Below, in pieces: positions 12,436-36,020 of a DNA stretch of 42,613 nt. A model generated the notes under the pieces. It ran no database searches. It was given only the letters and a program-made list of their open reading frames with translations, and was not told where the DNA came from. Position 1 is the stretch's first letter; every line of letters begins with the position of its first letter. Origin of the DNA: an uncultured Planctomycetaceae bacterium (GTDB taxonomy: Bacteria; Planctomycetota; Planctomycetia; Planctomycetales; Planctomycetaceae); the NCBI GenBank assembly GCA_937916515.1, contig CALFSX010000131.1, positions 1 through 42,613 on the forward strand, written 5' to 3'. The position numbers and the translations under genes are program-made.

Positions 12436-12525
12436 CTCGTAGCGACAACGGAGCGTCTCGGCGGTTCGAACGTCCTATGTCTTCCAGTCAACCACGCCAA
12501 TGGGTCAAGGGCGAAGCCCTTGTTA
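12436..12525 (-). repeat. Dispersed repeat family 1, copy C, joined to the selO stop codon
   Basis: On the minus strand the selO stop TAA (12525-12523) runs directly into CAAGGGCTTCGCCCTTGACC, then TTGGCGTGG, GGAAGACATAGGACGTTCG and CGTTGTCGCTACG. The orientation is sense with selO. A GACTCTAAA tail around 12407-12415 is shared with copies B and G. Confidence 0.88.
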
Positions 12526-14172
12526 TGAACTGCAGCTTAGCATCGAGCATCCGGCACGTTCGCGAGCCCATTCAGGACGCTTTGCAAAAAATGTTTCTTC
12601 GTGTTCCGGCTGTTCGTCGTAAGGATGTCTAAGCAAATCCAGCAGTGCGTTGACCATTGAATGGTCGCCCTGCTCCGCCTTGTCGATCGCCAGTTGCGCC
12701 ATGTAGTTTCGCAACACGTATTTCGGGTTGACGGAATCCATCAAGGTGCCACGTTGCTGGTCGGAGAGTTCATTACTCGCCAGTCTCTGGCTGTAACGCT
12801 TTAGCCAATCGATGGTGGCTTTCAGGGTGTCGCCTGCCAATTCGCCGGGCTTGTAATACGCTTCCTTCAGTGGTTCCAGCAGCGTTTCTCCGTCCGCGTC
12901 GCTGGCGTTTGCTGGGACGTTTTTGAGATTGCGGAAGAAAATGGTCATGTCCGTTTCGGTCAGCTGAAGCGTCTTCAAAAGATCGTTAATCAGTGGCTCA
13001 TCCGTTTCCGGAACAAAACCGGATAGTCCCAGTTTAGCAGCCATCATGCTGAAGTAGCCTTTGTTGAACGTGTCTGCATACAGTTGCAGCGAGTCTTCCA
13101 GAGGACCAGGTTCTTCAGTTAACTGCACGATTGCGTTGGCCAGCTGATACAGATTCCAGTGTGCAACTGTTGGCTGGTTTCCGAAGCGATAGCGACGACC
13201 GCTGGCGTCTGTGGTGTTGGGTGTCCAATCCGGATTGTAATCTTCCAGCCAGCCATATGGCCCGTAGTCGATTGTCAGCCCCAGGATCGACATGTTGTCG
13301 GTGTTCATAACTCCGTGAACAAAGCCAACTCGCTGCCAGTGGACAATCATCTCCGCCGTTTTCGTGCAGACTTCGCGAAACCAATGGAAGACGATTTCGT
13401 TGGCAACAGGTTCGTCGTTAGCGTGTGTGTTGTTGTCAATCAGGTGCGGGAAGTCATTGCGAATTGTGAAGTCGACCAGTGTGCGGAGGGTTTCAATATC
13501 CTGTCGAGCGGCAAAAATCTGGAAGTTGCCGAATCGGGTAAACGACTTTGCAACTCGACACACGATTGCTCCCGGTTCCAGTTGTGGGTTGCCGTCGTAG
13601 AACATGTCGCGTCGAACTTTTTCTCCGCTAAGAATCAGGCTTAACGCTCTGGTGGTTGGTACTCCCAGGTGATGCATGGCTTCGCTGCACAGGAATTCTC
13701 GCACGCTGGATCGCAACACGGCCAGCCCGTCGGCGGTTCGTGAATACGGTGTGGGACCAGCGCCTTTCAGTTGCAGAGTCCAGTGTTCATTGCCGGCGTT
13801 CCGGGCCTCGCCAAGATTGATCGCTCGACCATCACCCAGTTGTCCCGCCCAGTTGCCAAACTGATGTCCGCCATAGCACATAGCGAACGGGTCCATGCCC
13901 GGCAGTACCTTGTTGCCGGCAAAGATGTCTGCAAATTCAGAGCTGCGGCAGGTCGCTTCATCCAGGCCCAGCATTGCAGCCACTTCGCGGGAATAGGCGA
14001 CTAATTCCGGAGCGGCGACTTCCGTCGGCAACACTCTGGAGTAACAGGCCTTTTGAACCTGTCGCCGACTATTCACGGCGATTGGATCGGCCGGCAGTTG
14101 ATTTGTAAATCGATTGTCGAAAGTCAGGGCATCAAGCGTCACGGTTTTGGCAGACGTGTTGAGATGAAGCAA
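12523..14172 (-). CDS. selO: Protein adenylyltransferase SelO (YdiU/UPF0061)
   Basis: A pseudokinase-fold enzyme that transfers AMP from ATP to Ser/Thr/Tyr of target proteins; in E. coli it links to redox stress. The 549-residue product has FDNRFTNQLPADP near the N-terminus, YGGHQFGNWAGQLGDGRA, LQLKGAGPTPYSR with Lys136, HGVMNTDN with Asp292/Asn293, and the metal-binding DYGP with Asp302. It ends in CSMLSCSS, where Cys547 occupies the penultimate-region site that is selenocysteine in some animal homologues. The start is uncertain: TTG 14172 gives a short leader, and GTG 14142 also fits. The stop codon abuts a family 1 repeat. It diverges from the cytochrome-like gene. Confidence 0.96.
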   Translation of the reverse strand: MLHLNTSAKTVTLDALTFDNRFTNQLPADPIAVNSRRQVQKACYSRVLPTEVAAPELVAYSREVAAMLGLDEATCRSSEFADIFAGNKVLPGMDPFAMCYGGHQFGNWAGQLGDGRAINLGEARNAGNEHWTLQLKGAGPTPYSRTADGLAVLRSSVREFLCSEAMHHLGVPTTRALSLILSGEKVRRDMFYDGNPQLEPGAIVCRVAKSFTRFGNFQIFAARQDIETLRTLVDFTIRNDFPHLIDNNTHANDEPVANEIVFHWFREVCTKTAEMIVHWQRVGFVHGVMNTDNMSILGLTIDYGPYGWLEDYNPDWTPNTTDASGRRYRFGNQPTVAHWNLYQLANAIVQLTEEPGPLEDSLQLYADTFNKGYFSMMAAKLGLSGFVPETDEPLINDLLKTLQLTETDMTIFFRNLKNVPANASDADGETLLEPLKEAYYKPGELAGDTLKATIDWLKRYSQRLASNELSDQQRGTLMDSVNPKYVLRNYMAQLAIDKAEQGDHSMVNALLDLLRHPYDEQPEHEETFFAKRPEWARERAGCSMLSCSS

Positions 14173-14410
14173 ATAGCAAAACGGTCAAAAGCTGTCGCAA
14201 CAGCCAGCATGTCTGATTCATTGTTGAACAGAATTGCAAACGGACGGCGAACTTCAATAATAGTAGGGTTCCTGTCGCTCGAATGCAGGACCGAACGTCC
14301 GATCCACCGGGATATATCTTGACCCGAAGCCGAGTGAATGGTACTTTCTTTACAAACATAATTAATTCGAGCGTCGATTCTTCCCGCCTTTTTCTGCAAA
14401 AGTTCCCACC

Positions 14411-16933
14411 ATGCAGCGTCGCGCCGTTCATATTTTTTCGGCAATTCTTGTGTGTACCGCTTCGGTTTTGGCCGACGAGAATGCTGAGTTCACGCAGGAT
14501 CAGGTTGAGTTCTTTGATTCACAGGTTGTTGACCTGTTGAAGTCCAACTGTCTGAGCTGCCATTCCGGAAAGTCTCCCAAAGGTGCGTTGAACCTGACGA
14601 CGCGCGCTGGAATTTTGCAGGGCGGCGATTCCGGACCAGCGGTTGACCTCAAGGATCATGCAGAAAGTTACCTGATTCAGGCGATCAATTACGAGGGGTA
14701 CGAGATGCCTCCGTCTGGCCAAATGTCGCCTCAGCAAATTGGTGTGCTGACCAAGTGGGTGGAAATGGGTTTGCCGTGGCCGAAGGACCTTCACGAAATT
14801 GAATTCGAAGTTCACGCTGGACCGCCACCGGTCAACGAAGAGAACAAGAAGTTCTGGTCGTTTCAGCCGGTCAGGTTGCCAGAAGTTCCTGCCGTAAAAC
14901 AACCTGGCAATAACGCGGTTGATGCGTTCATTCGACACAAACTGGAAGCCGCCGGACTTACTCAATCGCCCGCCGCTGATGCTCGTGAACTTGTTCGACG
15001 AATGCACTACGACCTGTTGGGGTTGCCTGCAGAACCAATGGAACTTGATCGCTGGACGGCAAAGATTTCGACAGCGAATGCTGGTGAGCTAAATCAATCT
15101 GCCATCGCAGAACTGATTGATCATCTTCTGGAATCGCCTCACTACGGCGAACAATGGGGCCGGCATTGGCTGGACCTTGTTCGGTACGCAGAAACCAACA
15201 GCTACGAAAGAGATTCTGCCAAGCCGCATGTGTGGCGATACCGGGACTATGTCATTCAGGCATTTAATGATGACAAACCGTACGATCAATTTGTGACGGA
15301 ACAACTTGCGGGTGACGAACTTTCGGAACCCACGGCTGATTCTTTTGTTGCCACGGGCTACTATCGTTTGGGACGCTGGGACGACGAACCAGCCGATCCG
15401 AAGTTGGCGATCTATGATGAATTCGATGACATTGTGACCACAACAAGTCAGACGTTTCTGGGGCTGACAGTCAACTGTGCTCGCTGCCACGATCACAAGA
15501 TCGATCCGATTCCACAGAAAGACTACTACCGAATGGTGGCGTTCTTTCGCAACATTCAGCGTTATGGACAGCGCAGTCAGGAATCGGTTCTTAGTGCATC
15601 TGTCATGCAGATTGATCGCCCGGCAGACGCTCGATCGTATCAACAGGCGATTGCCAATTACGACAAGAGTTTGAAGGATGCTGAAAAGCAGGTTAGCAAG
15701 ATCGAAAAACTGATTTTGAATGATCTGCAGGACGTTGAAAAAGAAGACTTCCAGTACGAAGCGAATCGTGTTCGGATCGTTGAAAAACGCCAGGGCGGGA
15801 TTCTGGATGACCGGCAGGTTAAGAACTACAAGAAACAGTTTGAAAAGCTTCAGCACCTTAAAGCCAATAAACCAACAGGACTCGCTTCTGCACTGTGCGT
15901 TAAAGAAGACGTCACAAATATCAAGCCAACGTATCTGTTGACTCGTGGAAGTCCTCACGCCGAAGCCGATGAAGTCACGCCCGGATTTCCTTCAATTCTG
16001 TCTCCTCCGGACGCCGTTATTCCGCCAATGCCTGAAGGGGCCCAGACTTCCGGGCGTCGCAAAGTTCTGGCACAGTGGATCACCAGCGCCGACAATCCAT
16101 TGACAGCTCGAGTGATGGTGAATCGCATCTGGCAATACCACTTTGGGCGAGGCATCGTTCGGTCATCCAGTGATTTCGGTTTTCAGGGCACCAAACCTAC
16201 CCATCCGGAACTGCTGGATTGGTTGGCTGTAAAATTTGTCGAAAGTGGATGGTCCGTTAAGGCGATGCACAAGCTGATCATGAGTTCGTCGGCTTATCAA
16301 ATGTCGTCTCGACCGAGCGAACAATCGTTTGCCGTTGATCCTGTTAACGATTTGCTGTGGCGTTTTGACATGCGGCGGTTGTCTTCCGAAGAAATTCGAG
16401 ACACCATATTGTGGGTCAACGGCAGCCTGAATAAGGACCGCATGTTTGGTCCCAGCATTTACACCGACATTCCGGCAGCCGTTAAAGCGGGCCAGTCTCA
16501 ACCTGGTTCTGGCTGGGGCAATTCCACGCCGGATGACAAAGTGCGCCGCAGTATTTACATTCACGTCAAGCGGTCGCTGCTGGATCCGTTCATCGAATCG
16601 TTCGACTTTGCAGACACCGATCAAACATGTCCGGTTCGCTTTGTGACAACTCAGCCAACTCAGGCATTGGGAATGTTAAACAGCGAGTTTATTCTGCAGC
16701 AGGCCAGCGTCTTTGCCGAATTTATTCGTGAGACAAGCGGCGATTCTGCGGAGTCACAGGTGACAGCCGCGTTAACAAGAGCCATGCAGCGCAAGCCGAC
16801 TCAGGTTGAAATTGAACGCGGGCTTGAGCTGATTGAATCGCTGAAACAACATAACAACATGAACGACGAACAGGCCCGAAAGTACTTCTGTCTGGTCGCC
16901 TTGAATCTGAATGAATTGATGTATCTGGATTGA
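14411..16933 (+). CDS. Planctomycete cytochrome-type PSCyt1/DUF1549/DUF1553 protein
   Basis: The 840-residue protein has a Sec signal (about 1-21). A PSCyt1 haem-c domain carries CLSCH at 47-51 with a possible axial Met99 in YEMPPSG. DUF1549 follows at about 165-370 and DUF1553 at about 555-810 (RKVLAQWITSADNPLTARVMVNRIWQYHFGRGIV). DUF1549 contains a second CxxCH, CARCH at 356-360, which is usual for that family. Planctomycetes encode many such proteins next to DUF1501 partners; they are thought to act outside the cytoplasm, but their substrates are unproven. A charged helical insert (about 415-500) separates the two DUFs. It is followed 96 bp later by the DUF1501 gene, likely as an operon. 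Confidence 0.93.
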   Translation: MQRRAVHIFSAILVCTASVLADENAEFTQDQVEFFDSQVVDLLKSNCLSCHSGKSPKGALNLTTRAGILQGGDSGPAVDLKDHAESYLIQAINYEGYEMPPSGQMSPQQIGVLTKWVEMGLPWPKDLHEIEFEVHAGPPPVNEENKKFWSFQPVRLPEVPAVKQPGNNAVDAFIRHKLEAAGLTQSPAADARELVRRMHYDLLGLPAEPMELDRWTAKISTANAGELNQSAIAELIDHLLESPHYGEQWGRHWLDLVRYAETNSYERDSAKPHVWRYRDYVIQAFNDDKPYDQFVTEQLAGDELSEPTADSFVATGYYRLGRWDDEPADPKLAIYDEFDDIVTTTSQTFLGLTVNCARCHDHKIDPIPQKDYYRMVAFFRNIQRYGQRSQESVLSASVMQIDRPADARSYQQAIANYDKSLKDAEKQVSKIEKLILNDLQDVEKEDFQYEANRVRIVEKRQGGILDDRQVKNYKKQFEKLQHLKANKPTGLASALCVKEDVTNIKPTYLLTRGSPHAEADEVTPGFPSILSPPDAVIPPMPEGAQTSGRRKVLAQWITSADNPLTARVMVNRIWQYHFGRGIVRSSSDFGFQGTKPTHPELLDWLAVKFVESGWSVKAMHKLIMSSSAYQMSSRPSEQSFAVDPVNDLLWRFDMRRLSSEEIRDTILWVNGSLNKDRMFGPSIYTDIPAAVKAGQSQPGSGWGNSTPDDKVRRSIYIHVKRSLLDPFIESFDFADTDQTCPVRFVTTQPTQALGMLNSEFILQQASVFAEFIRETSGDSAESQVTAALTRAMQRKPTQVEIERGLELIESLKQHNNMNDEQARKYFCLVALNLNELMYLD

Positions 16934-17029
16934 TCGCTTCCTGTAAACGGTGACATTTTCGGTGCAAGCTTCGTTTCATTTCAGACAACAGCTGGTCGTT
17001 TCGACAGCTTCTTTTGGACGCAACATATT

Positions 17030-18487
<1,458 letters not shown>

Positions 18488-18490
<3 letters not shown>

Positions 18491-18575
18491 CAAGGGCTTC
18501 GCCCTTGACCCGGTGGCGTGGTGTGCGGGAAGACGTGGGTTGTTTGAATCGCCGAACCGCGACGTTGTCGCTATG
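18488..18575 (+). repeat. Dispersed repeat family 1, copy D, joined to the DUF1501 stop codon
   Basis: TAG of the upstream gene runs straight into CAAGGGCTTCGCCCTTGACC, then GGTGGCGTGG, GGGAAGACGTGGG, TTGAATCGCCGAACCGCGA and CGTTGTCGCTA. Sense orientation to the upstream gene. The palindrome could also act as a 3'-end hairpin, although no T-run follows. Confidence 0.9.
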
Positions 18576-18657
18576 TCGGTCTGCCGTAGGTCGGATCGAG
18601 CGTGTGCCGCGTGCCGGAACAGCGCGAACCCTGGCTAAATTACCTTAGTCGCTGAAG

Positions 18658-18699
18658 GCTTCGATGCAATGGCGGCCGCACGCGCTGCTCCGGCAGATT
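18658..18699 (+). repeat. Family 2 repeat (42 bp)
   Basis: GCTTCGATGCAAT, GGCGGCCGCACGCGCTGCTC, CGGCAGATT is the near-exact inverted counterpart of 174-215. A GTAGGTCGGATCGAGCG upstream (18586-18602) also resembles GTAGGCCGGACCATGCG at 151-167, so the shared unit may be composite. Confidence 0.7.
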
Positions 18700-18766
18700 T
18701 TTGGTTTGCTTGTCCGGCCGACTTGCTGCGAACATAGATGAAAAAACCAAGCACAACAGCACACGG

Positions 18767-19714
18767 CTACTGACGCGAGGTCGCTGGCGATTCTGTGGCC
18801 AGCAGGCTTCGCTTGGTTCCCTGCCAGTGGCGAATGTCGATTTGAAACGGAGCGGGAGCGTCGTCGAAGCCGTTATAGCTGCGGTGGTATTCGGCCATGC
18901 GTTCCAGTTTTTGAGCGACCGTTAGTTCTGCTGGATGAGCGGTTGTTGGTGCTCGGCCCCACAGGATTTCAGAATTGCCTTTGGAGACCAGGCGATACTG
19001 CAGGTCGTCTGTTTGGTCTGCCAGAGCAACCTGTCGTGGAGCCACAATCGCTTTAAAGCCCAGCATCTTCCACCACGACTGCCCTGCCTCGTTTTCGCGA
19101 GTCAACACGGCGGCCAGTTGAGCGGCACCGATGACAGCCGGATCGCCCCACGATTCGCCTCGACCAATCGGCACGCTGGCCACTTCGCGAATGACCGGAT
19201 ACCGATCGATGTCGGCGGTGCTAAAGTCTTTCTCGGGCAGCAGATAGCCATGTTTGTCGATGGGCAGATAGCCGCCGCCCGGAACTTCCACCATCGCGAC
19301 AGGTTCGCGATACACAACTTCCACGTGAACTCGCGCTGGAAACGACTTCTTCACCTGTTGAAGACGTTCGATCCATGGGTGAGTGTGAAAGGCCAGAGCG
19401 ATCTTTTCGCTAAGAGCCGGATCCAGCAGCGACAAAGATTCATCAAAGCCAGCTCGTTCGAAAACACGTTCAACAAGATCAACGGGCACCCAGTGAGGCG
19501 GCGGCGTGATGCTAAGTTCAGATACGCCGATTCGATATTCTTCGCGATTTTCCAGGCTTGGCAATTGGCGTTCAAACTGAGGCCAGCACAACCAGGCAAA
19601 TGCCAGAGCTGCCGCGATCACCAGGCGCATTGGTCGAAACATCCACCGCACCAGCCGTTGGGTTGGTGTGAGAGACTTCACTGGTTTCTTACGTGTGGTC
19701 GTTCCTCTGGCCAT
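18767..19714 (-). CDS. FtsQ/DivIB-like cell-division protein
   Basis: A 315-residue bitopic membrane protein with a basic cytoplasmic N-terminus, one transmembrane helix at about 30-46 (LVIAAALAFAWLCWP) and an extracytoplasmic region. The latter opens with a POTRA-like segment containing HPWIERLQQVKKSFPARVHVEVVYREPVAMVEV and then GYLPIDKHGYLLP, the classic FtsQ/DivIB pattern in which the POTRA domain leads into the beta domain. FtsQ organises the FtsQLB divisome subcomplex. No other dcw genes lie near. Planctomycetia are known for lacking FtsZ, so a solitary FtsQ-like protein is notable. The ATG is supported by the positively charged start. Confidence 0.75.
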   Translation of the reverse strand: MARGTTTRKKPVKSLTPTQRLVRWMFRPMRLVIAAALAFAWLCWPQFERQLPSLENREEYRIGVSELSITPPPHWVPVDLVERVFERAGFDESLSLLDPALSEKIALAFHTHPWIERLQQVKKSFPARVHVEVVYREPVAMVEVPGGGYLPIDKHGYLLPEKDFSTADIDRYPVIREVASVPIGRGESWGDPAVIGAAQLAAVLTRENEAGQSWWKMLGFKAIVAPRQVALADQTDDLQYRLVSKGNSEILWGRAPTTAHPAELTVAQKLERMAEYHRSYNGFDDAPAPFQIDIRHWQGTKRSLLATESPATSRQ

Positions 19715-20152
19715 TTGTTCGTCGATGTCAATCCGGTTGCACTGCCCTTGGGATGGGAGAACGGAAGCAAGAATTGCGTCCGATTCGAGCAGGTCAACAC
19801 TATAAATTTCGGCAATTGGCGTTGCGGTCTGATTGGAATCGCCCGGTTATACGGACATTTCCCAAGCCTGCCACAACCCGTTGAAACACAATGAGTTGCC
19901 GCATTGTAATTTTGACACACTGAACGTAAGTCGGCATCTGTTTGCCCGGAATCCGTCTGCAACAACCAGCGATTTCTGCCGAAGCTACGGAACTTACCGC
20001 TTGGGCAAACTAGGCAGAATTGTCGAAGCAGCGACCAAGCGGCTGTGAACTCCAAACGAAACATAAGCACCTGCCGCCCCCGAGCTGACATCGAGGGCTC
20101 ACAGCGTCTGTGCGACAATTCGTTTGCTGTGCACAGTCTGGTTTGTTGAAGT
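19715..20152. other. Intergenic region between FtsQ-like and BlaR-like genes
   Basis: A 438-bp stretch with no convincing gene; a long minus-strand frame has Cys/Arg-rich, shadow-like composition. GCCCCCGAGCTGACATCGAGGGC near 20078-20100 forms a hairpin downstream of the BlaR-like gene but has no T-run. The promoter of the FtsQ-like gene should lie in 19715-19850. Confidence 0.4.
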
Positions 20153-22547: not shown

Positions 22548-22564
22548 GTTGACGCTCCAGTCGG

Positions 22565-22604
22565 ATGTGCTACCTGATTAGCACATGCTGCTCAGGTAGC
22601 ACAT
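22565..22604. promoter_or_regulatory. Putative BlaI operator, 13-bp inverted repeat
   Basis: ATGTGCTACCTGA (22565-22577) and TCAGGTAGCACAT (22592-22604) are perfect inverted copies separated by 14 bp. They lie 18 bp before the repressor start. The spacer also contains GCACAT, giving an overlapping imperfect dyad with the left arm (TGTGCTACCTGATTAGCACA). Self-regulating BlaI-family operons carry operators in this position. Confidence 0.75.
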
Positions 22605-23415: not shown

Positions 23416-23434
23416 TTGTTTCTGTTCCTACGAA

Positions 23435-23538
23435 ACAAGGCCTTCGTCGTTGACTTGGTGGCGTGGCACGCGGGAAGACGTGGAACGCGGGAAGACGTGG
23501 AACGCTCGAATGGCCGAGCCGCGACTACGTCGCTACGG
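23435..23538 (+). repeat. Dispersed repeat family 1, copy E, with internal duplication
   Basis: ACAAGGCCTTCGTCGTTGACTTGGTGGCGTGG opens a diverged copy (shown here as its leading parts ACAAGGCCTTCGTCG, TTGACTTGGTGGCGTGG). CGCGGGAAGACGTGGAA occurs twice in tandem (about 23469-23502), which no other copy shows. It ends with GACTACGTCGCTACGG. It lies 20 bp after the DoxX-like stop, in sense orientation. Confidence 0.82.
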
Positions 23539-24914: not shown

Positions 24915-25565
24915 ATGTCGGACTATCTACGTTACTTTGTTGCGGGTGGAGCCTGCTTTTTCACTGTGGTGACACATCATCGTTGACATTTGTGTCAGGA
25001 TGAAGGCAACGTCGAATTACTGCGATCCGCAATCACAATCGTACGCCGCGAAATGCCGTTCGATATTGTTGCGGCGGTTGTGCTTCCAGATCATATGCAC
25101 TTCATTTGGTCGCTCCCGCCGGGTGATTCGGACTACTCAAAGCGTATCGGGAAATTTAAAGCGCAGTTCACCAAAACGTTTCATGAAGACAGCAAACAAA
25201 AATCAGTGGTGTCAGCATCCAGAGCGAAGCATCGGGAAAGCGATGTTTGGCAACGCCGGTTTTGGGAACACACCATTACCGATGAAGACGAATTTCAGCG
25301 GCTGTTTGATTACATTCATTTTAACCCTGTCAAACACGGATACGCCGTTTGTCCGCATGACTGGAAGGCAAGTAGCTTTATCAAATGGGTGGAACGCCGC
25401 GTTGTTGATCAACGATGGGGATGTTCGTGCAACGGTCGTACTGTGAATATGAACTTTCAAAGCGTTGAGGAACTGTTGGCGAGTAGGGTTGGTGAATATC
25501 TCTGCGAGGTTTTGTGTGTTGGTGATTGGTGGGCGGTGCCCACCCTACGGCGCTACGGCGCATGA
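24915..25565 (+). pseudogene. RAYT (REP-associated tyrosine transposase), nonsense-interrupted
   Basis: An IS200-like Y1 transposase of the RAYT group, which moves REP palindromes. The frame opens at ATG 24915 (MSDYLRYFVAGGACFFTVVTHHR), hits an in-frame TGA at 24984-24986, and continues unbroken in the same phase to 25565. The TGA could derive from CGA (Arg) by one change. The downstream part keeps the HUH motif in LPDHMHFIW and the catalytic-Tyr region FDYIHFNPVKHGY, so only the first beta strand is cut off. TTG 24990 could restart translation but would lack that strand. The last residues (VGDWWAVPTLR) are encoded by a REP palindrome, so the original C-terminus may have been shorter. Flanking REP copies on both sides support the RAYT assignment. 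Confidence 0.85.
25528..25548 (+). repeat. REP-like palindrome at the 3' end of the RAYT relic
   Basis: GGTGGGCGGTGCCCACC followed by CTAC. Same sequence class and orientation as 24689-24709; it overlaps the last codons of the transposase frame. Confidence 0.85.
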
Positions 25566-25591
25566 AGAAAGCAGGCCGGAGCCTGCTTTCT
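25566..25591. terminator. Terminator between the RAYT relic and gyrA
   Basis: AGAAAGCAGGC, loop CGGA, GCCTGCTTTCT form a perfect 11-bp stem with T-rich flanks on both strands. It lies 35 bp beyond the gyrA stop (minus strand) and immediately after the RAYT frame. Confidence 0.85.
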
Positions 25592-25625
25592 GTTGGTTAC
25601 TGACTGACTGGTTTCGGTCAGATGC

Positions 25626-28442
<2,817 letters not shown>

Positions 28443-28804
28443 CCTGAAAACTCCTTATGGGCTCGTCAGCCCTGGTCATTTGCAGCACATCCACCCGAGT
28501 TGCGATCAGCAAGAGCTGTTGCGACAACGAAGCAGATTTGGCACGAAAAACGGAGGCTGTAAAACCTCCTAAATCTTTGTTCAATAATGATTTACGACCA
28601 TTGCTGAACACCCCCTGAGTTTAGCAAAAAACACACCGATTCACAATTCACCGTTGCTTCAATTTGGAGGAGTTTACTGTGTTAAACAGGGCTTAACCCT
28701 GCATTTGATTGTGTTTGCGTGAATGGACTTCAGTACCGCCGCCATTTACCATCGTGGATTCTGTTTTACGTAACCAATCCACACTGATTGAACGGGTGCT
28801 GAAT
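28443..28804. other. Divergent intergenic region (gyrA / SGNH hydrolase)
   Basis: A 362-bp gap. GGAGGCTGTAAAACCTCC (28550-28567) and CAGGGCTTAACCCTG (28687-28701) are small hairpins. Promoters for both genes should lie here. A frame from 28709 runs into the hydrolase but its first 32 residues do not look like a signal peptide. Confidence 0.45.
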
Positions 28805-29515
28805 ATGTCGATTTCGCGTTGTTTGTCTGTTGTTTGCCTGATGGCATTGTCTCGTTCTGGTTTGCCGCAGCTTGTTGCTCAGGGGCCAACTGTGGCGGCT
28901 GCGACCAGCCCGGAAAAGTGGGAAACGGACATTCAGGCATTCGAAAAAAAGATCATTGGCGGAACGTCGAAGCCGGGCAGCGTGTTGTTCATCGGAAGTT
29001 CCAGCATTCGCAAATGGGATCTGCCGAAGTGGTTTCCGGATCACCAGTCGATCAATCACGGATTTGGCGGTTCAGAAATTTCCGATTCACTGTATTTCTT
29101 TGATCGTGCGGTAACTTCTGTTAAGCCCAGCTTGATTTTGTTGTATGCCGGTGACAACGACATTGGAAAAGGCAAGACGGCAGAAATTGTGCATCAAGAC
29201 TTTCGGAAGTTCGTGAAGCTTGTGCGTGAAAAGTTGCCACCTCAAACAACCGTCGCTTTCATTGCGATCAAACCCAGCATTAAACGTTGGAATCTGCGTG
29301 AAGAGATTGTCAAAGCCAACAGCCTGATTGCCAAAGATTGCGAAGCCGATGCAACTCTGGAATACGTCGATGTCTGGACTCCCATGCTGGGCGACGATGG
29401 CACTCCAACGCCCGACCTGTTTGTCAAAGACGGATTGCATCTTAGTGACAAAGGCTACCAGATCTGGACCGACGCTGTGATGAAACTGATGCCACAGGCA
29501 GCGTCTGTTAAGTAA
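28805..29515 (+). CDS. Secreted SGNH/GDSL-family hydrolase
   Basis: The 236-residue product starts with a Sec signal (MSISRCLSVVCLMALSRSG), which decided the ATG at 28805 over an upstream in-frame start. SGNH blocks are in order: block I FIGSSSIRKW (nucleophile Ser66 in G-S-S-S), block II GFGGSEI, block III AGDNDI with Asn118, and block V DGLHLSDKGY with Asp209 and His212. These enzymes are esterases or lipases acting on acyl groups of lipids or polysaccharides. The substrate is not predictable, but export suggests an envelope or external polymer. No operon partner is evident. Confidence 0.88.
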   Translation: MSISRCLSVVCLMALSRSGLPQLVAQGPTVAAATSPEKWETDIQAFEKKIIGGTSKPGSVLFIGSSSIRKWDLPKWFPDHQSINHGFGGSEISDSLYFFDRAVTSVKPSLILLYAGDNDIGKGKTAEIVHQDFRKFVKLVREKLPPQTTVAFIAIKPSIKRWNLREEIVKANSLIAKDCEADATLEYVDVWTPMLGDDGTPTPDLFVKDGLHLSDKGYQIWTDAVMKLMPQAASVK

Positions 29516-29655
29516 GTGATGGCTTGTCAGTGGCGGCGCACTGTAAGTCACGTCGAATACGTTTAACGCGACTTTCAACTGCTGGGTGTAACTTCTGTCA
29601 TTGTGATATCATGCTTTGATTCGTCTTTTTGCAATATTCGCTAAGTAGCATAACC

Positions 29656-30954
29656 ATGAACAACGCACGCCAACTTATTCATCCTCGTGATGAAATCATG
29701 CAAACGATGGATCGCATCTATCGTTATCGTATGACGACAACGTCCGGCGGAAATTTGTCCGTGCGTGATGATGCAGGAGACATCTGGATTTCGCCTGCTC
29801 GAGTCGATAAGGGTAACCTGACTCGCAATGACATTGTTTGCGTCAAGCCGGATGGCTCCGTAGAAGGTTTACACCCTCCTTCGTCTGAATTCCCGTTTCA
29901 CAAAGCGATCTACGATGCTCGCCCTGATATTCGCGCAATCGTGCACGCTCATCCGGTGGCGTTGGTGGCTTTCAGTATTTGTCGTCAGGTTCCGGATACG
30001 AAGCTGTTTCATCAGGCTCATTCGGTTTGCGGCAAAACCGGCTTCGCGCCGTATGCGCTGCCGGGCAGCAAGCAGTTAGGCACCAACATCGCGGAAAGTT
30101 TTGCGGCTGGCTGTGATAGCGTGATATTGGAAAATCACGGAGTGGTAGTGGGAGGCGATTCGTTGTCGCATGCGTTTCAACGATTTGAAGCGTTTGAATT
30201 TGCTGCCAAGACAATTGTCAAAGCGAAGCAGGTTGGTGATGTACGCTATCTGACGGACGCACAGCTGCAGCAGGCTCACAACCGCAGTGTGGCGCTGGAG
30301 ACATTTGAACCGCCAGCAGCGACGTCTGAAGAAATGGAACTGCGTCGGCAGTTGTGTGCGTTTATTCGTCGAGGGTGCCGGCAACGTTTGTTAATCAGCA
30401 CCGAAGGAAGTTTTTCGGCGCGGCTAAGCGGCGATTCATTCGTGATTAGTCCAACTCAGCAGGATCGCGAAACTCTGGACGTGTCTGATCTGGTGCTGGT
30501 GAATGGCGGACGTCGCGAGGTTGGCAAGAAGGCCAGTCGAGCCGTGTTTGCTCATCAGGCGATTTATCAGAAGCACCCGCACGTTCAGGCGATTGCGTTC
30601 GCTCATCCGGTCAACGCCACAGCATTTAGTGTGACGACAACCAGGTTGGACGTGCGCACGATTCCTGAAAGCTATGTGTTTCTGCGGGATGTTGGTCGAG
30701 TACCGTATGGTGTTCAGTATTTGAATGATGGCAGCATGGCGTCGGCTGTGTCTGCAGCGTCTCCTGCGGCACTGCTGGAAAACGATGGCGTGTTGATTAC
30801 GGGTTCCAGCGTGCTCGACACTTTTGATCGTCTGGAAGTTCTGGAATCAACGGCAGAAGCTGTAATCAACGCAGGTGCCATTGGTACTGTTGCCACAATG
30901 CCCGACAGCGCAATCGACGAGCTTTGTGAAGCATTTGGATTGAAGTTCAGTTAG
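29656..30954 (+). CDS. Tandem class II aldolase/adducin-domain protein
   Basis: A 432-residue protein made of two class II aldolase domains. Domain 1 (about 8-195) keeps the zinc site and catalytic acid: Glu78 in PSSEFPFH, His97 and His99 in VHAHP, His161 in LENHG. Domain 2 (about 228-410) aligns over its length but has Ala296, Phe315 (AFAHP) and Asp377 (LENDG) at three of these four positions, so it is probably inactive. Relatives cleave sugar phosphates such as fuculose-1-phosphate, but the substrate here is unknown. The ATG at 29656 was preferred to a TTG nine codons upstream. Cytoplasmic; no sugar-kinase gene adjoins it. Confidence 0.87.
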
Positions 30955-31161
30955 CGGGAATTGCTGACACGTTGTTTGATGAAGCGTCGATTGTTGCATT
31001 TTGGCAACGTGTCTTATTTTTCCAGCAAGGCCGCTCTGTCAGAAGATTGAACGGAGATCTTTCGTCAACTTGTCCGCGTAAGATCATTCCGCAATTGCTT
31101 CGACGTTGGGGTGTCATAATTCACCGAATAAATCATCAACTGTTCCTGTTGAGATTCGGGC

Positions 31162-31884
31162 ATGAAGGGCACTATCACAAACGGGCTTGAAATTCTTGCG
31201 ACCGGACTTGGTCCGTATGTCGAAACTCGCCTGCGCGAACGCCTGGGTGACAACTGGACAACCGCTGGCAGTGTGGCTCACGTGATAAACTCCGTTGATC
31301 GAACTAAGTGGGACGCTCAGGTGGTGCTGGTGTTGATGTGGGAAAACTGGAATGCCGTTTTTCGCCACGAACTTAGTTTTGTAGAGCGCAGCCTGATTAG
31401 CGAGCTTCGCGAATTCCGAAACCGTTGGGCTCACCAGCAGCAGGTGAGTTTGCGAGATACCTATCGCTGCATTGACGGAATTGAACGGCTGTTGCAGGCT
31501 GTTCACAGCACGTCTGTTGAGCAGGCCAGTCAGCTTCGTCGCGAAACTTTGAAGTTGCTGTACGACGACGAACTGGTGGAGTCCAACCTGACGGCTCGCG
31601 ATTGGTTTACAGCGGCTGTTGCGGCGGTATGTGCATTTTTGATTGTTGTTGTGGTTTTGGAATACCTGAGGCAGCCGTTGTCGTGGGTGCTGGCGGCGCT
31701 CACCACGATTGTGTTTTCGCGATTTGTTTACCTGACGACTCGCGAAAGGATTGTGGTGAACACAGGACCACGCCATTGTGGCCACTGTTCGCGTGTTTAT
31801 TACGGTGCTTTTTGTCCGTATTGCCAGCCACACGTTGCAAGCAGGAAACCTACGTCGGAAATTCCAGACGCAGTTGTTTCCTGA
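31162..31884 (+). CDS. Membrane-anchored Swt1-type HEPN protein with zinc ribbon
   Basis: The 240-residue protein starts with an Swt1-like HEPN domain (about 12-120): LGPYVETRLRERLGDNW, WDAQVVLVLMWENWNAVFRHELSFVERSLISELREFRNRWAHQ. Arg86 to His91 form the R-x4-H HEPN ribonuclease motif. Two hydrophobic segments (about 151-168 and 172-190) follow. The C-terminus has a zinc ribbon with CxxC pairs Cys206/Cys209 and Cys218/Cys221. HEPN RNases act in toxin-antitoxin and abortive infection systems, but not all HEPN proteins cut RNA. The combination with membrane helices and a ribbon is unusual to me. It converges with a Crp-type regulator 31 bp away. Confidence 0.72.
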   Translation: MKGTITNGLEILATGLGPYVETRLRERLGDNWTTAGSVAHVINSVDRTKWDAQVVLVLMWENWNAVFRHELSFVERSLISELREFRNRWAHQQQVSLRDTYRCIDGIERLLQAVHSTSVEQASQLRRETLKLLYDDELVESNLTARDWFTAAVAAVCAFLIVVVVLEYLRQPLSWVLAALTTIVFSRFVYLTTRERIVVNTGPRHCGHCSRVYYGAFCPYCQPHVASRKPTSEIPDAVVS

Positions 31885-31930
31885 CGTTCGCGGTTTCGGC
31901 TTTTTTGCTGCGACTTCAAGCAGGAAACAA
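31874..31930. terminator. Inverted repeat between convergent HEPN and Crp genes
   Basis: TTGTTTCCTG (31874-31883) and CAGGAAACAA (31921-31930) are perfect inverted copies whose 37-bp loop contains a T-run. The arms overlap the last codons of both genes. A possible shared transcription end, though the loop is large for a standard terminator. CAAGCAGGAAAC also occurs at 31837-31848, inside the HEPN gene. Confidence 0.5.
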
Positions 31931-32611
31931 CGCTGTGTTAAAGAACGCTGTATTGCTGATGGTCATGCGCCGCTGGTTGATTTTTAAAACGCCTTCGGCC
32001 TGAAGTTCCCCCAAAGTTATCGTGACAGTTTCTCTGGTGGCCCCGATGATGCTGGCCATGTCCTGATGAGAAATCTTTTGAGCGATGATGACTCCATCTG
32101 CAGTTGGCTGTCCGTAAGTTTTTGTAAGTTCGCTTAACAGGTGAATCAGGCGTTCGCGGCTGGTTCGGAATAACAACGACTTCAGGCGACCTTCCGCTCG
32201 GCTAAGTTTTGCGGCGAAGTGTTTTGCCAGCTTGTTAGCAACGGCCGAAGATTCGTTTAGCAATTTCTTTAAAAAGTTCTGCGGTACTTCAACAATCGAC
32301 GACCTTTCAACAGCTTCAGCGAACTCATTTCGGAGTTCGTCACCCTGATTGAAGATTGACAACTCACCAAACAGTTCGGCAGGTTCTACAAATCCCAGAA
32401 TCGCCTGTTTGCCGTCGGTGGCCGGATGAAAAGTTCGCACGCGTCCGCGCCCCAACAGCAAAACGGTGTCGGCTGTGTGCTTTGGCGTATAGACCATCTG
32501 TCCGCGACTGAATTCTCGACAATGGCAATGTTGTTCGAGCAAAAGTAACTGCTCCGCTGCCAGGTCATGAAAGATGTCACACTTTTTCAGATACCAGTAA
32601 TTGTCGTTCAT
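31916..32611 (-). CDS. Crp/Fnr-family transcriptional regulator
   Basis: The protein is about 231 residues. An N-terminal cyclic-nucleotide-binding-type beta roll (FHDLAAEQLLLLEQHCHCREFSRGQMVYTPKHTADTVLLLGRGRVRTF and FGELSIF) is followed by a long dimer helix and a C-terminal winged helix (ISHQDMASIIGATRETVTITLGELQAEGVLKI). The recognition helix is ATRETVTITLGEL. Three N-terminal Cys (11, 29, 31) do not match the four-Cys iron-sulphur pattern of Fnr. A cAMP-contacting Arg motif is not evident, so the ligand is unknown. ATG 32611 was preferred to a TTG eleven codons upstream. Its targets cannot be told from the sequence. Confidence 0.9.
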   Translation of the reverse strand: MNDNYWYLKKCDIFHDLAAEQLLLLEQHCHCREFSRGQMVYTPKHTADTVLLLGRGRVRTFHPATDGKQAILGFVEPAELFGELSIFNQGDELRNEFAEAVERSSIVEVPQNFLKKLLNESSAVANKLAKHFAAKLSRAEGRLKSLLFRTSRERLIHLLSELTKTYGQPTADGVIIAQKISHQDMASIIGATRETVTITLGELQAEGVLKINQRRMTISNTAFFNTALFPA

Positions 32612-32935
32612 GATTTCGTGTTGCAGCGAATTTCGCTGATTCAATGTTGTTGAACCAATTGTTGGGCCTTCGTGTCAGATTCAGGCGGATTTACACCGTC
32701 GGAATCCTTCGCCCATTGCTGAATACCGCTCTTCGCGACCGATTAATTTACCGAATCAGGTTGGTACACCTTGAGACGACCTTGAAGCCGTTTACCTTAC
32801 TCGGGTTGAAGTCAAAAGCTGGAAGAAACCGTCAGTGGCTGAATTCGCGAAATTTCCTGGGCTGAATGGCATCGCCGGAATGGATTTCGCAGGCTAGAAT
32901 CGCACGTTCAGAGCTCGTTACACTGGAAGAAAACG
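32612..32935. other. Divergent intergenic region, no gene seen
   Basis: A 324-bp gap between the Crp-type gene (-) and the aminotransferase (+). An open + frame over 32644-32865 is rich in Arg/Leu and lacks a ribosome-binding site. Presumed to hold both promoters. Confidence 0.4.
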
Positions 32936-34171
32936 ATGAGAAGCGAATCAGAAGTACTTTTTGAAGACACGCCGTTCAAGATCCCTGTCGCAGAACGTGT
33001 GAAGCGTTTGCCACCGTATATGTTCGGTGCGATCAACAAACGAAAATACCAGCTTAGAGTCGATGGCGTAGACGTGATTGACCTTGGCATGGGAAATCCC
33101 ACGGACCCGCCGGATCCGCTGATCGTTCAAAAGATTGAAGAAGCCCTGGCGGATTCTCGTAACCATCGTTATTCCGTCAGCAACGGTATTGGCAACCTGC
33201 GCAAAGAAGTCTCGTCGCGTTATTGGAAACGTTACGGCGTGCGGCTTGATCCGGACAGCGAGGTGCTGGCGTGTATCGGTTCCAAAGAAGGCTTCAGTCA
33301 TATGTGCCTGGCGCTGATGGGGCCAGGAGACACCGCCATTGTGCCGTCACCCTATTTCCCGGTTCACGTCTACGCCGTCATGCTGGCGTCTGGCAACGTG
33401 ATTACTCTGGACACGCGCGAACCGGAAACGTTTCTGCAAAACATTGCCTACACGTGCGAACACCTTGTTCCCAAGCCCAAAGTTGTGGTCGTGAATTTTC
33501 CTCACAACCCCACAGCAACCGTGATTGAAAAAGAGTTCTATGTTGACCTTGTTAAGCTGGCCAAAAAGCATGGCTTTCTTGTGATCAGCGACTTTGCTTA
33601 TGCGGACATTTGCTACGACGGCTATGAAGCTCCCAGTTTTCTGGCGACACCGGGGGCGATTGATGTCGGTGTGGAAATGACTTCGATGAGCAAAAGCTAC
33701 AGCATGGCTGGCTGGCGAATTGGCTTTTGCTGCGGCAACAAAGAAATGGTTCGAGCTCTGGCGACAATCAAGGGCTACTACGACTACGGAATTTTTCAGC
33801 CGATCCAGATTGCTGCGATTGTGGCCATGCGTCATTGCGATGCAGCCGTTGAAAGCATCACCAAAGAATACCAAAGTCGACGTGACGTGTTGTGCGAAGG
33901 CCTGACTCGATTGGGCTGGGACGTCACTCCACCAAAAGCCGGCATGTTTGTGTGGTCTCAAATGCCGAAAGAATGGCGTCACATGGGATCGATTGAATTT
34001 GCAATGAAGCTGCTTAACGAAGGCGGCGTCGCTGTGAGTCCCGGTCGAGGATTCGGAGATGATGGCGAAGGCTGGCTGCGTTTGGCGATCGTCGAGAACA
34101 GCCAGCGATTGCGTCAGGCGGTTCGTCAAATCGACAAGTGCCTTAGCAAAGATGGAGTTGCTTCTGAGTGA
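32936..34171 (+). CDS. alaC: AlaC-like PLP-dependent aminotransferase
   Basis: A fold-type I aminotransferase of 411 residues. It matches E. coli AlaC (glutamate-pyruvate transaminase) through most of its length: [89 protein letters not shown] and [21 protein letters not shown]-binding Lys253, Asn191, Asp219 and Arg261 are present. It probably makes alanine from pyruvate with glutamate, but LL-diaminopimelate aminotransferases share this fold, so the amino-acid choice is inferred. ATG 32936 follows a GGAAG. A short hairpin with T6 (34234-34259) follows as a likely terminator. Confidence 0.88.
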
Positions 34172-34233
34172 TCAGCGCTTGGTTGCGGCGGCGTTTTCGG
34201 CTGGTTAACTGGACAGCGACATGTATCAATCAG

Positions 34234-34259
34234 CCGCACGGCGTTAGCCGCGGTTTTTT
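34234..34259 (+). terminator. Hairpin terminator after the aminotransferase, inside the MITE-like element
   Basis: CGGC, loop GTTA, GCCG with flanking CC/GG pairs is followed directly by T6, 62 bp after the alaC-like stop codon. Confidence 0.6.
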
Positions 34260-34333
34260 CGTCATCCGCGCAAACCGGGTTCAACGCCTAAACGGCTGAT
34301 GTGGTGATTCTCGACGCAGCCTGAATTGAATCG

Positions 34334-34400
34334 TTTAACCTGACTCGAAGAGGAGGCCGCACGCAATCAGCCGCAGACCTCCTCTACGAGTCGGGTTAAA
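34334..34400. repeat. Long inner inverted repeat of the MITE-like element
   Basis: TTTAACCTGACTCGAAGAGG plus AGG pairs with CCTCCTCTACGAGTCGGG plus TTAAA, 21 of 23 bases matching, around a 21-base loop. As RNA it would form a very stable stem. No T-run follows. Confidence 0.75.
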
Positions 34401-34556
34401 CATGAATTCCGTAATTTTCCACCGTTTAAGGTATAACAGAAATACTAACCATTCATTTAACGTGCCGCTGTCCAATTAATCGCCCCTTCAGATCCGCGAT
34501 GAATTTCTGGAAATATGGCTCGGCTTAAACAGTCTTGCTGCAACAGAAAAACGCAT

Positions 34557-34592
34557 AAAGCCTCGGACTTTCAAGAGTCCGGGGCTTTGTTA
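34557..34592 (+). terminator. Hairpin terminator without an obvious upstream gene
   Basis: AAAGCCTCGGACT pairs with AGTCCGGGGCTTT (one G-U pair), then a T-rich tail GTTATTTC. It lies about 390 bp after the last + strand gene, so it could end a small RNA beginning in 34400-34540. No other feature is seen in 34480-34697. Confidence 0.65.
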
Positions 34593-34697
34593 TTTCATGG
34601 TCACTTGTAATTGCATCGTCAGAAGCGTCACATATCTGCGTCAGGCTGCTTGTTGTGGTCAGCCGTTAAACCTTGACGCTTTTGGGGAACCTTCTTG

Positions 34698-35738
34698 ATG
34701 CTTCGCCAGCTTGCTTTTCTTTGTTGTTCTATCGTGTGTGCCGCTTCTTTTGCCGACGGCAGTAACGGTCGATTCGATATCTATTTTATCGATGTCGAAG
34801 GTGGCGCGGCGACGTTGCTGGTCACCGGCGAAGGTGAATCTGTACTGATCGATTCCGGGTACCCGGACAATCATGGTCGAGACAAAGATCGCATTATTGG
34901 CGTGGCGAAAAACGTCGCCGGGTTGTCGAAAATTGATCACGCTGTGGTCTCACACTGGCACATGGATCATTATGGCAATCATGCGGTTGTTGCTGCAGAA
35001 TTTGGAATCGGGACTTTCTGGGATCGAGGCATTCCGGACACACTGCAGGAAGACCGTTCGTTTGAAGAACGCATCGCAGCTTACCGATCCGCCTCTCAAA
35101 ATGGATCGAAGTCACTTAACGTCGGCGATCATATTCCGTTGAAGTCTGGCAAGACAAAGTTGACTGCCACAGTGCTGACGTCAAGTCGTGACGTTGTTGC
35201 GAATACCGGAACACCGAATCCCTTTGCCGACCGTCATCAGCAACGCGACTCAGACGCTTCGGACAACGCAGCCAGTCTAAGCGTGTTGTTTCAGTTTGGA
35301 GACTTTCGATTTTTCACATGCGGCGACCTGACGTGGAATATCGAAGGCAAGTTAATGACCCCCAACAATCCCGTGGGGACTGTCGATCTGTTTATGGTTA
35401 CGCATCACGGCTTGCCGACCAGCAACAATCCCGCTTTGGTATTGGCAGTTGACCCGACGGTTACCGTGATGTGCAACGGGCCAACCAAAGGTGGCGCTGA
35501 AGAAACTTTGAAAACGCTGCGTGAAGTTAAGTCTCTAAAAGACATGTATCAGTTGCACACAAACGTAAAGCTGGCCGCCGAACTTCAGGCCCCGACAGAC
35601 TTCATCGCCAATTCCGGCACGACAGATACGTGTAAAGGTCAATGGGTCAAAGCCAGTGTCGCGCCCGATGGAGCCAGCTATACCGTCCAAATCGGACCAA
35701 AAGGCAAACAACGCACCTATACGACTCGAACCCACTAA
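34698..35738 (+). CDS. Secreted metallo-beta-lactamase-fold hydrolase (ComEC/Rec2-like)
   Basis: The protein is about 346 residues, starting at ATG 34698 behind GGGGAA. It begins with a Sec signal (MLRQLAFLCCSIVCAASFADG). The metallo-hydrolase core has VSHWHMDHYGN with His86, His88, Asp90 and His91, followed by FTCGDLTW and VTHHGLPTSNN, where further metal ligands fall. The opening DIYFIDVEGGAATLLVTGEGESVLIDSGYP matches the ComEC-type branch of the superfamily. Free-standing secreted members are hydrolases of unknown substrate; DNA uptake is not implied, because the membrane channel is absent. The TAA stop (35736-35738) forms the first codon of a family 1 repeat. Confidence 0.87.
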   Translation: MLRQLAFLCCSIVCAASFADGSNGRFDIYFIDVEGGAATLLVTGEGESVLIDSGYPDNHGRDKDRIIGVAKNVAGLSKIDHAVVSHWHMDHYGNHAVVAAEFGIGTFWDRGIPDTLQEDRSFEERIAAYRSASQNGSKSLNVGDHIPLKSGKTKLTATVLTSSRDVVANTGTPNPFADRHQQRDSDASDNAASLSVLFQFGDFRFFTCGDLTWNIEGKLMTPNNPVGTVDLFMVTHHGLPTSNNPALVLAVDPTVTVMCNGPTKGGAEETLKTLREVKSLKDMYQLHTNVKLAAELQAPTDFIANSGTTDTCKGQWVKASVAPDGASYTVQIGPKGKQRTYTTRTH

Positions 35739-35824
35739 CAAGGGCTTCGCCCTTGACCCGGTGGCGTGGCATGCCGGAAGACGTGGGACGTTCTAATCGC
35801 CGAGCCGCGACGTTGTCGCTACGG
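35736..35824 (+). repeat. Dispersed repeat family 1, copy F, joined to the metallo-hydrolase stop codon
   Basis: TAA then CAAGGGCTTCGCCCTTGACC, GGTGGCGTGG, GGAAGACGTGGGACGTT, AATCGCCGAGCCGCGA, CGTTGTCGCTACGG. The sequence is close to the consensus. Sense orientation to the upstream gene. Confidence 0.92.
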
Positions 35825-35932
35825 AAAGATGTTTGCGCTGAGTGTGCGTTTTGTAGAGTTGTTTTCTCACGGTGCTGCGCCGCATTTAGAGTCTTATTCA
35901 AAATGAAGCGCGCACGGTGCGCGCATGTTGTT

Positions 35933-36020
35933 CGTAGCAACAACGGAGCGGCTCGGCGATTCCAGCGTTCCATGGTTGGCAGCCAACCACGCCACTGGGT
36001 CAAGGGCGAAGCCCTTGTTA
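35933..36020 (-). repeat. Dispersed repeat family 1, copy G, inverted relative to copy F
   Basis: On the minus strand it reads TAACAAGGGCTTCGCCCTTG, GTGGCGTGG, GTTGCTACGAA. It faces copy F across 108 bp, so both together form a 285-bp inverted pair. The inner flank has GCGCGCACGGTGCGCGC (a palindrome) and TTTAGAGTCTTATTCA shared with copy B. No gene on the minus strand ends at its TAA. Confidence 0.9.

What the first reader, a model, noticed from the sequence alone, without database searches (positions are those of the whole stretch)
12436..36020. Dispersed repeat whose first bases abut the stop codons of three unrelated genes
Seven copies of a roughly 90-bp repeat occur in the window (53-140 +, 12200-12270 -, 12436-12525 -, 18488-18575 +, 23435-23538 +, 35736-35824 +, 35933-36020 -). 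In three of them the palindrome CAAGGGCTTCGCCCTTG directly follows the stop codon of selO (TAA), the DUF1501 gene (TAG) and the metallo-hydrolase gene (TAA), always in sense orientation. A fourth copy starts 20 bp after the DoxX-like gene. An element that inserts precisely at stop codons, or a shared 3'-end RNA signal spread between genes, would be a new kind of intergenic system. That three of seven copies abut a stop by chance seems unlikely.
Basis: partly seen in the sequence, partly recalled or inferred. Interest (0 to 1): 0.78.

Follow-up and report, generated by a model that had tools for sequence, protein, structure and literature searches.

The report
Mobile hairpin repeat at stop codons
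A small hairpin-ended mobile DNA repeat, present in hundreds of copies in this bacterial genome, lands just after the sequence CCTAA and so often sits exactly behind a gene's TAA stop codon, more often than its target sequence alone predicts.

Summary
The repeat is a 132-bp transposase-free element: a hairpin starting at its first base (CAAGGGCTTCGCCCTTG), a second hairpin near the right end, and a fixed right end ...GACTCTAA. It lies 3' of a conserved flank CCTAA, without target duplication. This is the anatomy of palindrome-associated elements moved by IS200/IS605-type single-strand transposases. The genome holds 421 pattern copies, 7 congeners none; 2 of 169 other family genomes matched (43 and 2 copies). 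The "stop codon" is usually the TAA of the target, and most copies are not at stops. Even so, stops are favoured. In 1.46 Mb, 42 of 185 copies abut a sense stop exactly, and 26 of 59 in a second genus. With the same pentamer, stop sites have about 7-fold higher odds of occupation than other gene-edge sites. Homologs without the element end at the same codon (SelO 7/7, DUF1501 7/7, a third gene 7/7), so the stop came first. Stop-abutting copies more often lack the right end yet keep the left hairpin, hinting at retention as a 3' RNA structure. Whether insertion bias or selection causes the excess is open.

The parts
56..140 (+). copy 1, left part only, flank CCTGA; near contig start, no upstream gene held
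12156..12267 (-). copy 2, with right end GACTCTAA, flank CCCAA, 255 nt downstream of SelO stop
12408..12522 (-). copy 3, with right end GACTCTAA; first base follows SelO stop TAA
12523..14142 (-). SelO gene; C-terminus SCSS*; stop TAA is the left flank of copy 3
17030..18490 (+). DUF1501 gene, stop TAG is the left flank of copy 4
18491..18575 (+). copy 4, left part only, directly after DUF1501 stop
23436..23537 (+). copy 5, degenerate, with a 17-nt internal duplication, 20 nt after the upstream gene
34734..35738 (+). metallo-beta-lactamase-superfamily gene, stop TAA is the left flank of copy 6
35739..35823 (+). copy 6, left part; directly after the stop; faces copy 7
35886..36017 (-). copy 7, complete 132-bp element, flank CCTAA, 120 nt downstream of the gene at 36138-37034

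Best explanation
It is a non-autonomous, palindrome-associated mobile element of the IS200/IS605 (single-strand, HUH/Y1 transposase) type. Shown: a 132-bp unit with a hairpin at base 1, a second hairpin before the right end, right end CTCTAA, left flank CCTAA, no target duplication, no room for a transposase gene, serial insertion behind its own right end, and hundreds of copies in one species with none found in 7 congeners. Inferred: a Y1 transposase acting in trans cuts single-stranded DNA after CTAA and joins the element there. Because TAA is a stop codon, insertion after a CC-TAA gene end leaves the gene whole. Shown: such sites are occupied far more often than equal sites elsewhere. Inferred: the excess comes from insertions there being harmless and the left hairpin being kept at gene 3' ends, possibly because it acts in the mRNA, as REPs near stop codons do. 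In some genes the stop is now the element's own in-frame TGA 18 nt in, adding QGLRP to the protein.
For: Consensus flank and ends. Right end is element-borne: of 78 copies scored as full length, 42 had a left flank other than CTAA, and only 1 of those had matching left and right tetramers. The consensus folds better than shuffles as DNA (z -3.3, 0 of 200 shuffles as good); as RNA less clearly (z -1.7, 9 of 200). Right hairpin: among 41 of 63 full copies chosen for pairing, each of 9 pairs shows 2-11 double compensatory changes and 3-8 broken cells. Distribution: 421 copies own, 0 of 7 congeners, 3 of 170 family genomes including own. Stop excess: 35 of 148 copies with an upstream gene, 7 of 21 in a second sample, 26 of 45 in G012. 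Same-pentamer occupancy: CCTAA 15/23 at stops, 7/35 at other sites within 30 nt of a gene edge, 15/158 farther; four weaker pentamers 17/87, 9/266, 9/1077. Within the same intergenic region 38 observed against 14.35 expected of 148; in regions up to 150 nt, 11 against 5.6-6.2 of 24. Homologs end at the same codon; G001 has the same last bases ctcc-TAA without the element. Stop-abutting copies: right end missing in 29 of 42 against 43 of 116 (p 5e-4); positions 1-17 and 18-31 less diverged (p 0.012, 0.007) while 40-85 equal.
Against: The mobilising enzyme is not identified: none of the 6 Y1 transposase genes found in this genome has the element's ends beside it; the nearest copies lie about 1.4 kb or more away. 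The left hairpin begins at base 1, whereas Haloquadratum PATEs have a longer 5' spacer (PMC3119063, passages). 72 of 158 scored copies lack a recognisable right end. The hairpin-conservation test is weak: uncorrected, not significant among copies that keep the right end (p 0.22 and 0.42), and most stretches were chosen for holding near-perfect copies of positions 1-31. Promoter-type selection does not explain the excess in convergent regions (15 observed, 6.52 expected of 35). In G012 flanks at stops are mostly CCTGA while CCTAA is the commonest nonstop flank, which needs a later TAA-to-TGA drift.
Confidence: 0.68

Rival explanations
1. The stop excess is only the target sequence: insertion is uniform over CTAA-like sites outside genes, and TAA stops are simply among them.
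For: Nonstop copies carry a similar CC(T/C)AA flank, and target choice alone predicts some abutting copies: about 7 of 155, or 11-14 of 127-148 within the same intergenic regions.
Against: Observed 35-42; same-pentamer odds about 7 against other gene-edge sites (p 8e-4 and 5e-6); excess holds in convergent regions; a second genus also has many abutting copies (26 of 45).
Confidence: 0.12
2. True coupling of insertion to gene ends: the coding strand is exposed as single strand where translation stops (for example in R-loops behind the last ribosome), so the transposase works preferentially there. This could hold together with the best explanation.
For: Observed over expected falls from the stop outward on the sense side (10, 5, 2.3, 0.4 at 0, 1-10, 11-30, 31-100 nt); young and old copies show a similar stop fraction (9/34, 10/35, 9/34, 7/35); in two orthologous genes of two genera, copies that look like each genome's own subtype sit at the same stop.
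Against: Antisense copies also cluster 11-30 nt upstream of start codons (17 observed, 5.1 expected), which this does not predict; selection after random insertion gives a similar picture.
Confidence: 0.25
3. The foot CTAA/CTGA belongs to the element and supplies stop codons to genes it truncates, as reported for GTAG REPs; only in-frame arrivals survive because the other two frames of the element are open for about 36-39 codons.
For: 18 of 19 genes that run in sense into the element do so in frame 0 and end at its TGA 18 nt in (12 of 12 in G012, 6 of 7 own); frames 1 and 2 stay open; one such protein ends 10-22 residues before the ends of its seven 48-51% identical homologs (read by eye).
Against: For copies directly after a stop, homologs lacking the element end at the same codon in 4 of the 6 genes compared with close homologs (SelO 7/7, DUF1501 7/7, P0009 7/7, L140 1/1; P0009's homologs range from 40 to 63% identity); in the other two the homolog differs by 5 and 2 residues.
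Confidence: 0.15
4. The repeat is a fixed functional 3' RNA signal (terminator or stabiliser) spread by selection rather than a transposon.
For: Stop-abutting copies keep positions 1-31 and more often lack the right end; REPs within 15 nt of a stop are reported to affect translation in E. coli (PMC12306157, passages).
Against: 74 copies behind antisense gene starts, a tandem array, nested insertions, target flank and sporadic species distribution fit a mobile element; the consensus has no T-run right behind the left hairpin.
Confidence: 0.08

Closest known systems
PATEs, palindrome-associated transposable elements (Haloquadratum, PMC3119063, passages read)
   Same: no terminal inverted repeats, palindromes near both ends, no target duplication, no transposase gene, conserved 4-5 bp 5' targeting sequence outside the element, many copies
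   Different: left palindrome starts at base 1; no cognate IS605-type element found here; strong excess directly behind stop codons; bacterial
GTAG/CGTC REP sequences with RAYT (PMC3733652, passages and section 15 read; PMC6006769, passages and section 27 read)
   Same: high-copy extragenic hairpins with a tetranucleotide foot, often close to 3' ends of genes, termini sometimes supplying the stop codon
   Different: foot is CTAA (mostly CTGA at stops in G012), not GTAG; unit is 132 bp with two different hairpins and a fixed right end; not found flanking a transposase gene
Class 3 TnpA-Y1 associated structures with CnGA foot (PMC6006769, section 27 read)
   Same: reported mainly from planctomycetes, acidobacteria and proteobacteria; can be high-copy hairpins with a CnGA foot, described as resembling both IS and REPtrons; this genome has two Y1 proteins with NHVH and Y....Q motifs
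   Different: those structures flank the gene; here no copy lies next to the two genes (nearest a partial copy about 1.8 kb away); the class assignment is by motif only
E. coli REPs within 15 nt of stop codons (PMC12306157, passages read, citing earlier work)
   Same: hairpin close behind a stop codon, possible effect on translation and mRNA
   Different: distance here is exactly zero and set by the target sequence; no RNA data

Membership tests
PATE | no terminal inverted repeats | tested here: met
   left CAAGGGC..., right ...GACTCTAA unrelated
PATE | palindromes near both termini | tested here: met
PATE | no target duplication | tested here: met
   left and right tetramers do not covary
PATE | conserved short 5' targeting sequence outside the element | tested here: met
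   CCTAA, present in element-free ortholog L218
PATE | too short to code for a transposase | tested here: met
   132-bp consensus
PATE | palindromes related to those of a resident IS605-type transposon | tested here: inconclusive
   no element ends beside the six Y1 genes found by Pfam PF01797; TnpB-only elements were not searched and the assembly is in 343 contigs
IS200/IS605 family (autonomous) | Y1 HUH transposase gene inside the element | tested here: not met
   132 bp, no such gene; it would be a derivative only
IS200/IS605 family (autonomous) | cleavage by TnpA on single strands, circular ssDNA intermediate | not testable with these tools
   needs biochemistry
REP/RAYT (REPtron) | GTAG-type foot at the hairpin | tested here: not met
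   foot is CTAA
REP/RAYT (REPtron) | copies flanking a RAYT gene | tested here: not met
   the window's own RAYT-like gene has different, GTAG/CTAC-flanked hairpins
Class 3 TnpA-Y1 associated repeats | CnGA foot, gene flanked by copies | tested here: inconclusive
   foot CTAA own, CTGA at most stops in G012; gene C107 lies at a contig end with no copy in the 20 kb held; gene in C184 has only a partial copy about 1.8 kb away

The most novel reading that the evidence does not exclude
A single-strand transposon that is directed to translation-termination points on the coding strand, so that a stop codon is its privileged landing site, and whose left hairpin is then kept as a 3' mRNA structure and, in some genes, as the C-terminal coding end (QGLRP*).
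Probability: 0.22. Interest if true: 0.82.

Novelty: new variant of a known kind. Interest (0 to 1): 0.57.

Why it matters
It gives a clear case in which a mobile repeat's target sequence contains a stop codon, so that the element can spread next to genes without breaking them. It also offers many natural replicates to ask whether a hairpin placed exactly behind a stop is kept for an RNA role, and whether single-strand transposition follows translation. Seven congeners show no copies by pattern, so filled and empty gene ends can be compared.

Tried and rejected
Target sequence alone as the cause of the stop excess: rejected by same-pentamer and within-region tests.

Target duplication or MITE with terminal inverted repeats: rejected.

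Rfam family: none in the window at gathering thresholds.

The repeat as part of ancestral coding sequence: rejected for SelO, DUF1501 and P0009. The hydrolase of the window was not compared with homologs. Among the 79 stop-abutting or read-through genes, 29 had a non-self homolog in the fetched loci, mostly distant, with end differences from 0 to well over 10 residues; these were not used as proof. The MurJ-like read-through gene (P0008; name from recall) was inconclusive because C-terminal tails vary.

Decayed native stop as the origin of all read-through cases: the codon before the element is one step from a stop in 5 of 6 own cases and 5 of 12 G012 cases (read by me), and one own case is shorter than its homologs. 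Not settled.

Finding the transposase: six Y1 genes in the genome, none with the element at its flanks. IS91-type, IS110-type and TnpB genes were not searched.

A second hairpin module (CGAGGC.GTGCCTC) first looked like an independent family; 32 of 34 copies follow TCTAA, TCCAA, TCTGA or TTTAA, 17 of 34 directly at a scored right end of the first element, and 0 of 34 abut a stop.

Sister families in congeners with another left hairpin: none by pattern; one weak, diverged match in G005.

Dropped before counts: copies whose left end was not aligned (7 of 168 nhmmer hits; 2 of 26; 7 of 66); copies with no upstream gene; tandem followers (10 of 185). Gene ends come from my own hexamer-based gene caller, not from an annotation.

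Full report
WHAT IS THERE. The window is a whole contig (C131) of an 8.33-Mb genome in 343 contigs. I take it for a planctomycete: the named contigs that carry the exact 31-nt pattern belong to one Planctomycetaceae MAG, HKST-UBA52 (2 stretches), and DUF1501 genes abound (94 matches in this genome); no record names the genome itself.

ANATOMY. From 143 copies within 4 mismatches in 1.09 Mb of the genome (window plus 60 stretches), the five bases before the palindrome are not free: C 56%, C 70%, T 60%, A 82%, A 83% (140 usable copies). In 63 copies with a recognisable right end the consensus unit is 132 bp, starting CAAGGGCTTCGCCCTTG and ending ...GCATCATTTTGAGTAAGACTCTAA; the last five bases are TCTAA in 35 of 63 and the five bases before the element CCTAA in 22 of 63. 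Left and right tetramers do not covary, so there is no target duplication. The left hairpin is nearly invariant in these copies, which were chosen by similarity there. The right hairpin varies: among 41 of 63 copies selected for pairing, each of nine pairs has 2-11 double compensatory changes and 3-8 broken cells. Elements are found serially behind TCTAA right ends and in an 87-bp tandem array. This is the plan of an IS200/IS605-type single-strand element without its transposase.

DISTRIBUTION. 421 copies (up to 3 mismatches in 31) in this genome; 0 in 7 congeners and 43 in G012, another genus; 3 of 170 family genomes including this one, the third (G096) with 2. One G096 copy and the gene end before it look the same as a G012 copy, so that match may be a mis-binned contig.

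STOP CODONS. With genes called by a hexamer model, 35 of 148 copies having an upstream gene start at the base after a sense stop (28 TAA, 5 TAG, 2 TGA); the next distances are 2, 3, 4, 5, 5, 8. A second sample of 20 stretches (5 taken for Y1 genes; 6 of the other 15 hold copies already listed) gave 7 of 21. Combined, of 185 copies: 42 directly behind a stop, 43 sense at other distances, 74 behind an antisense gene start, 6 read through, 3 other overlaps, 10 tandem followers, 7 without upstream gene. In G012, 26 of 45 copies with an upstream gene (59 in all) abut a stop.

IS THE TARGET ENOUGH? No. CCTAA sites are occupied in 15 of 23 cases when TAA is the stop, in 7 of 35 within 30 nt of a gene edge and in 15 of 158 farther away. 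For TCTAA, ACTAA, GCTAA and CTTAA the figures are 17/87, 9/266 and 9/1077. Odds for stop against edge are 7.5 (p 8e-4) and 6.9 (p 5e-6); edge against far is 2.4 (p 0.085) and 4.2 (p 0.004). Placing each copy at random among weighted sites of its own intergenic region, with copies cut out, predicts 14.35 of 148 at stops; 38 are seen; in convergent regions 6.52 of 35 are predicted and 15 seen. In regions up to 150 nt the excess is smaller, 11 seen against 5.6-6.2 of 24. Many sampled stretches were chosen for holding near-perfect copies, which raises all occupancies but not obviously the ratio. Antisense copies also crowd 11-30 nt upstream of start codons (17 against 5.1), so part of the effect is a gene-edge effect.

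WAS THE STOP THERE FIRST? Yes in the genes tested closely. SelO ends ...SCSS* in 7 of 7 homologs of 63-72% identity (2 congeners, 5 family genomes); SelO hits of about 40% identity were not compared this way. DUF1501 ends at the same codon in 7 of 7 congeners. A third gene (P0009; homologs of 40-63% identity) does in 7 of 7, and G001 shows the same last bases ...ctcc TAA followed by unrelated DNA. A 74-aa gene ends alike in G012 without the element. Two other pairs differ by 5 and 2 residues. In two orthologous genes, G012 and this genome each carry a copy, by eye of their own subtype, at the same stop, most simply two independent arrivals.

READ-THROUGH. 19 genes run in sense into the element; in 18 (12 of 12 in G012, 6 of 7 own) the frame is the same and the gene ends 18 nt in at CAA GGG CTT CGC CCT TGA, adding QGLRP (the odd one, in L168, is in frame 1). 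The other two frames of the element stay open for a median of 36-39 codons, so selection can explain the phase. One such protein (P0007) ends 10-22 residues before the ends of its seven 48-51% identical homologs (read by eye), so there the element may supply the stop.

RETENTION. Copies behind stops lack the right end more often (29 of 42 against 43 of 116, p 5e-4). They are less diverged in positions 1-17 and 18-31 (p 0.012 and 0.007) but not in 40-85 (p 0.36); among copies that keep the right end no difference is significant. This is suggestive of the left hairpin being kept at gene ends; the test is uncorrected, and the sample was partly chosen by positions 1-31.

KNOWN RELATIVES. The features match palindrome-associated transposable elements as described for Haloquadratum (PMC3119063, passages read), except for the base-1 hairpin and the partner transposon, which was not found. 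REPs near gene 3' ends, and GTAG REPs whose ends supply a TAG stop, are in print (PMC3733652, section 15), as is an effect of REPs less than 16 nt from a stop on translation in E. coli (PMC12306157, passages). Class 3 Y1 proteins, reported among others from planctomycetes, come with hairpins bearing a CnGA foot (PMC6006769, section 27); this genome has two proteins with the NHVH and Y....Q motifs, but no copy lies beside them. Three searches of the paper library aimed at planctomycete or stop-adjacent repeats showed no title about this element among the rows listed (12-15 each).

VERDICT. A real, strong association with a plain first cause (a CCTAA target whose TAA can be a stop), plus an excess that the target does not explain. 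Shown: anatomy, flank, distribution, excess on the part sampled, native stops in the genes tested. Inferred: single-strand transposition by a Y1 enzyme in trans, and the reason for the excess.

Noticed in passing
window 24990-25565 (+), hairpins between about 24533 and 25547: A RAYT-like Y1 transposase gene with several GGTGGGC..GCCCACC hairpins flanked by GTAG/CTAC: an ordinary-looking REP/RAYT system, different from the repeat studied.
   Followed up: partly
window 144-251 and 18622-18729: A 108-nt inverted repeat pair, 79% complementary, lying close behind copies 1 and 4; another dispersed repeat.
   Followed up: no
L064 about 10540-11151 in minus-strand coordinates (G000:C318): Tandem array of eight 87-bp left-part units, the last followed by a right end; head-to-tail growth of the element.
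   Followed up: no
fetched stretches, e.g. L066 6582, L072 8878: Second hairpin module CGAGGC.GTGCCTC..AAGTCTAA sits mostly behind TCTAA-like junctions (34 copies) and was never seen abutting a stop; looks like a composite longer element.
   Followed up: partly
own genome, antisense copies: Copies behind antisense genes cluster 11-30 nt upstream of start codons (17 seen, 5.1 expected); the target read on the other strand is TTAGG, close to a ribosome-binding site (the likeness is recalled).
   Followed up: partly
G000:C107:185-751 and C184 (L075, L078): Two Y1 proteins with NHVH and Y....Q motifs resembling class 3 TnpA; one sits at a contig end.
   Followed up: partly
L199 (G096:C373) and L131 (G012:C295): The same gene end with the same repeat variant in two genera; possible mis-binned contig.
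   Followed up: no
G012 copies behind stops: Flanks at stops are CCTGA (15 of 26) but nonstop flanks CCTAA (5 of 19) and CCTGA once, consistent with stop codons drifting TAA to TGA after insertion in a TGA-rich genome.
   Followed up: partly
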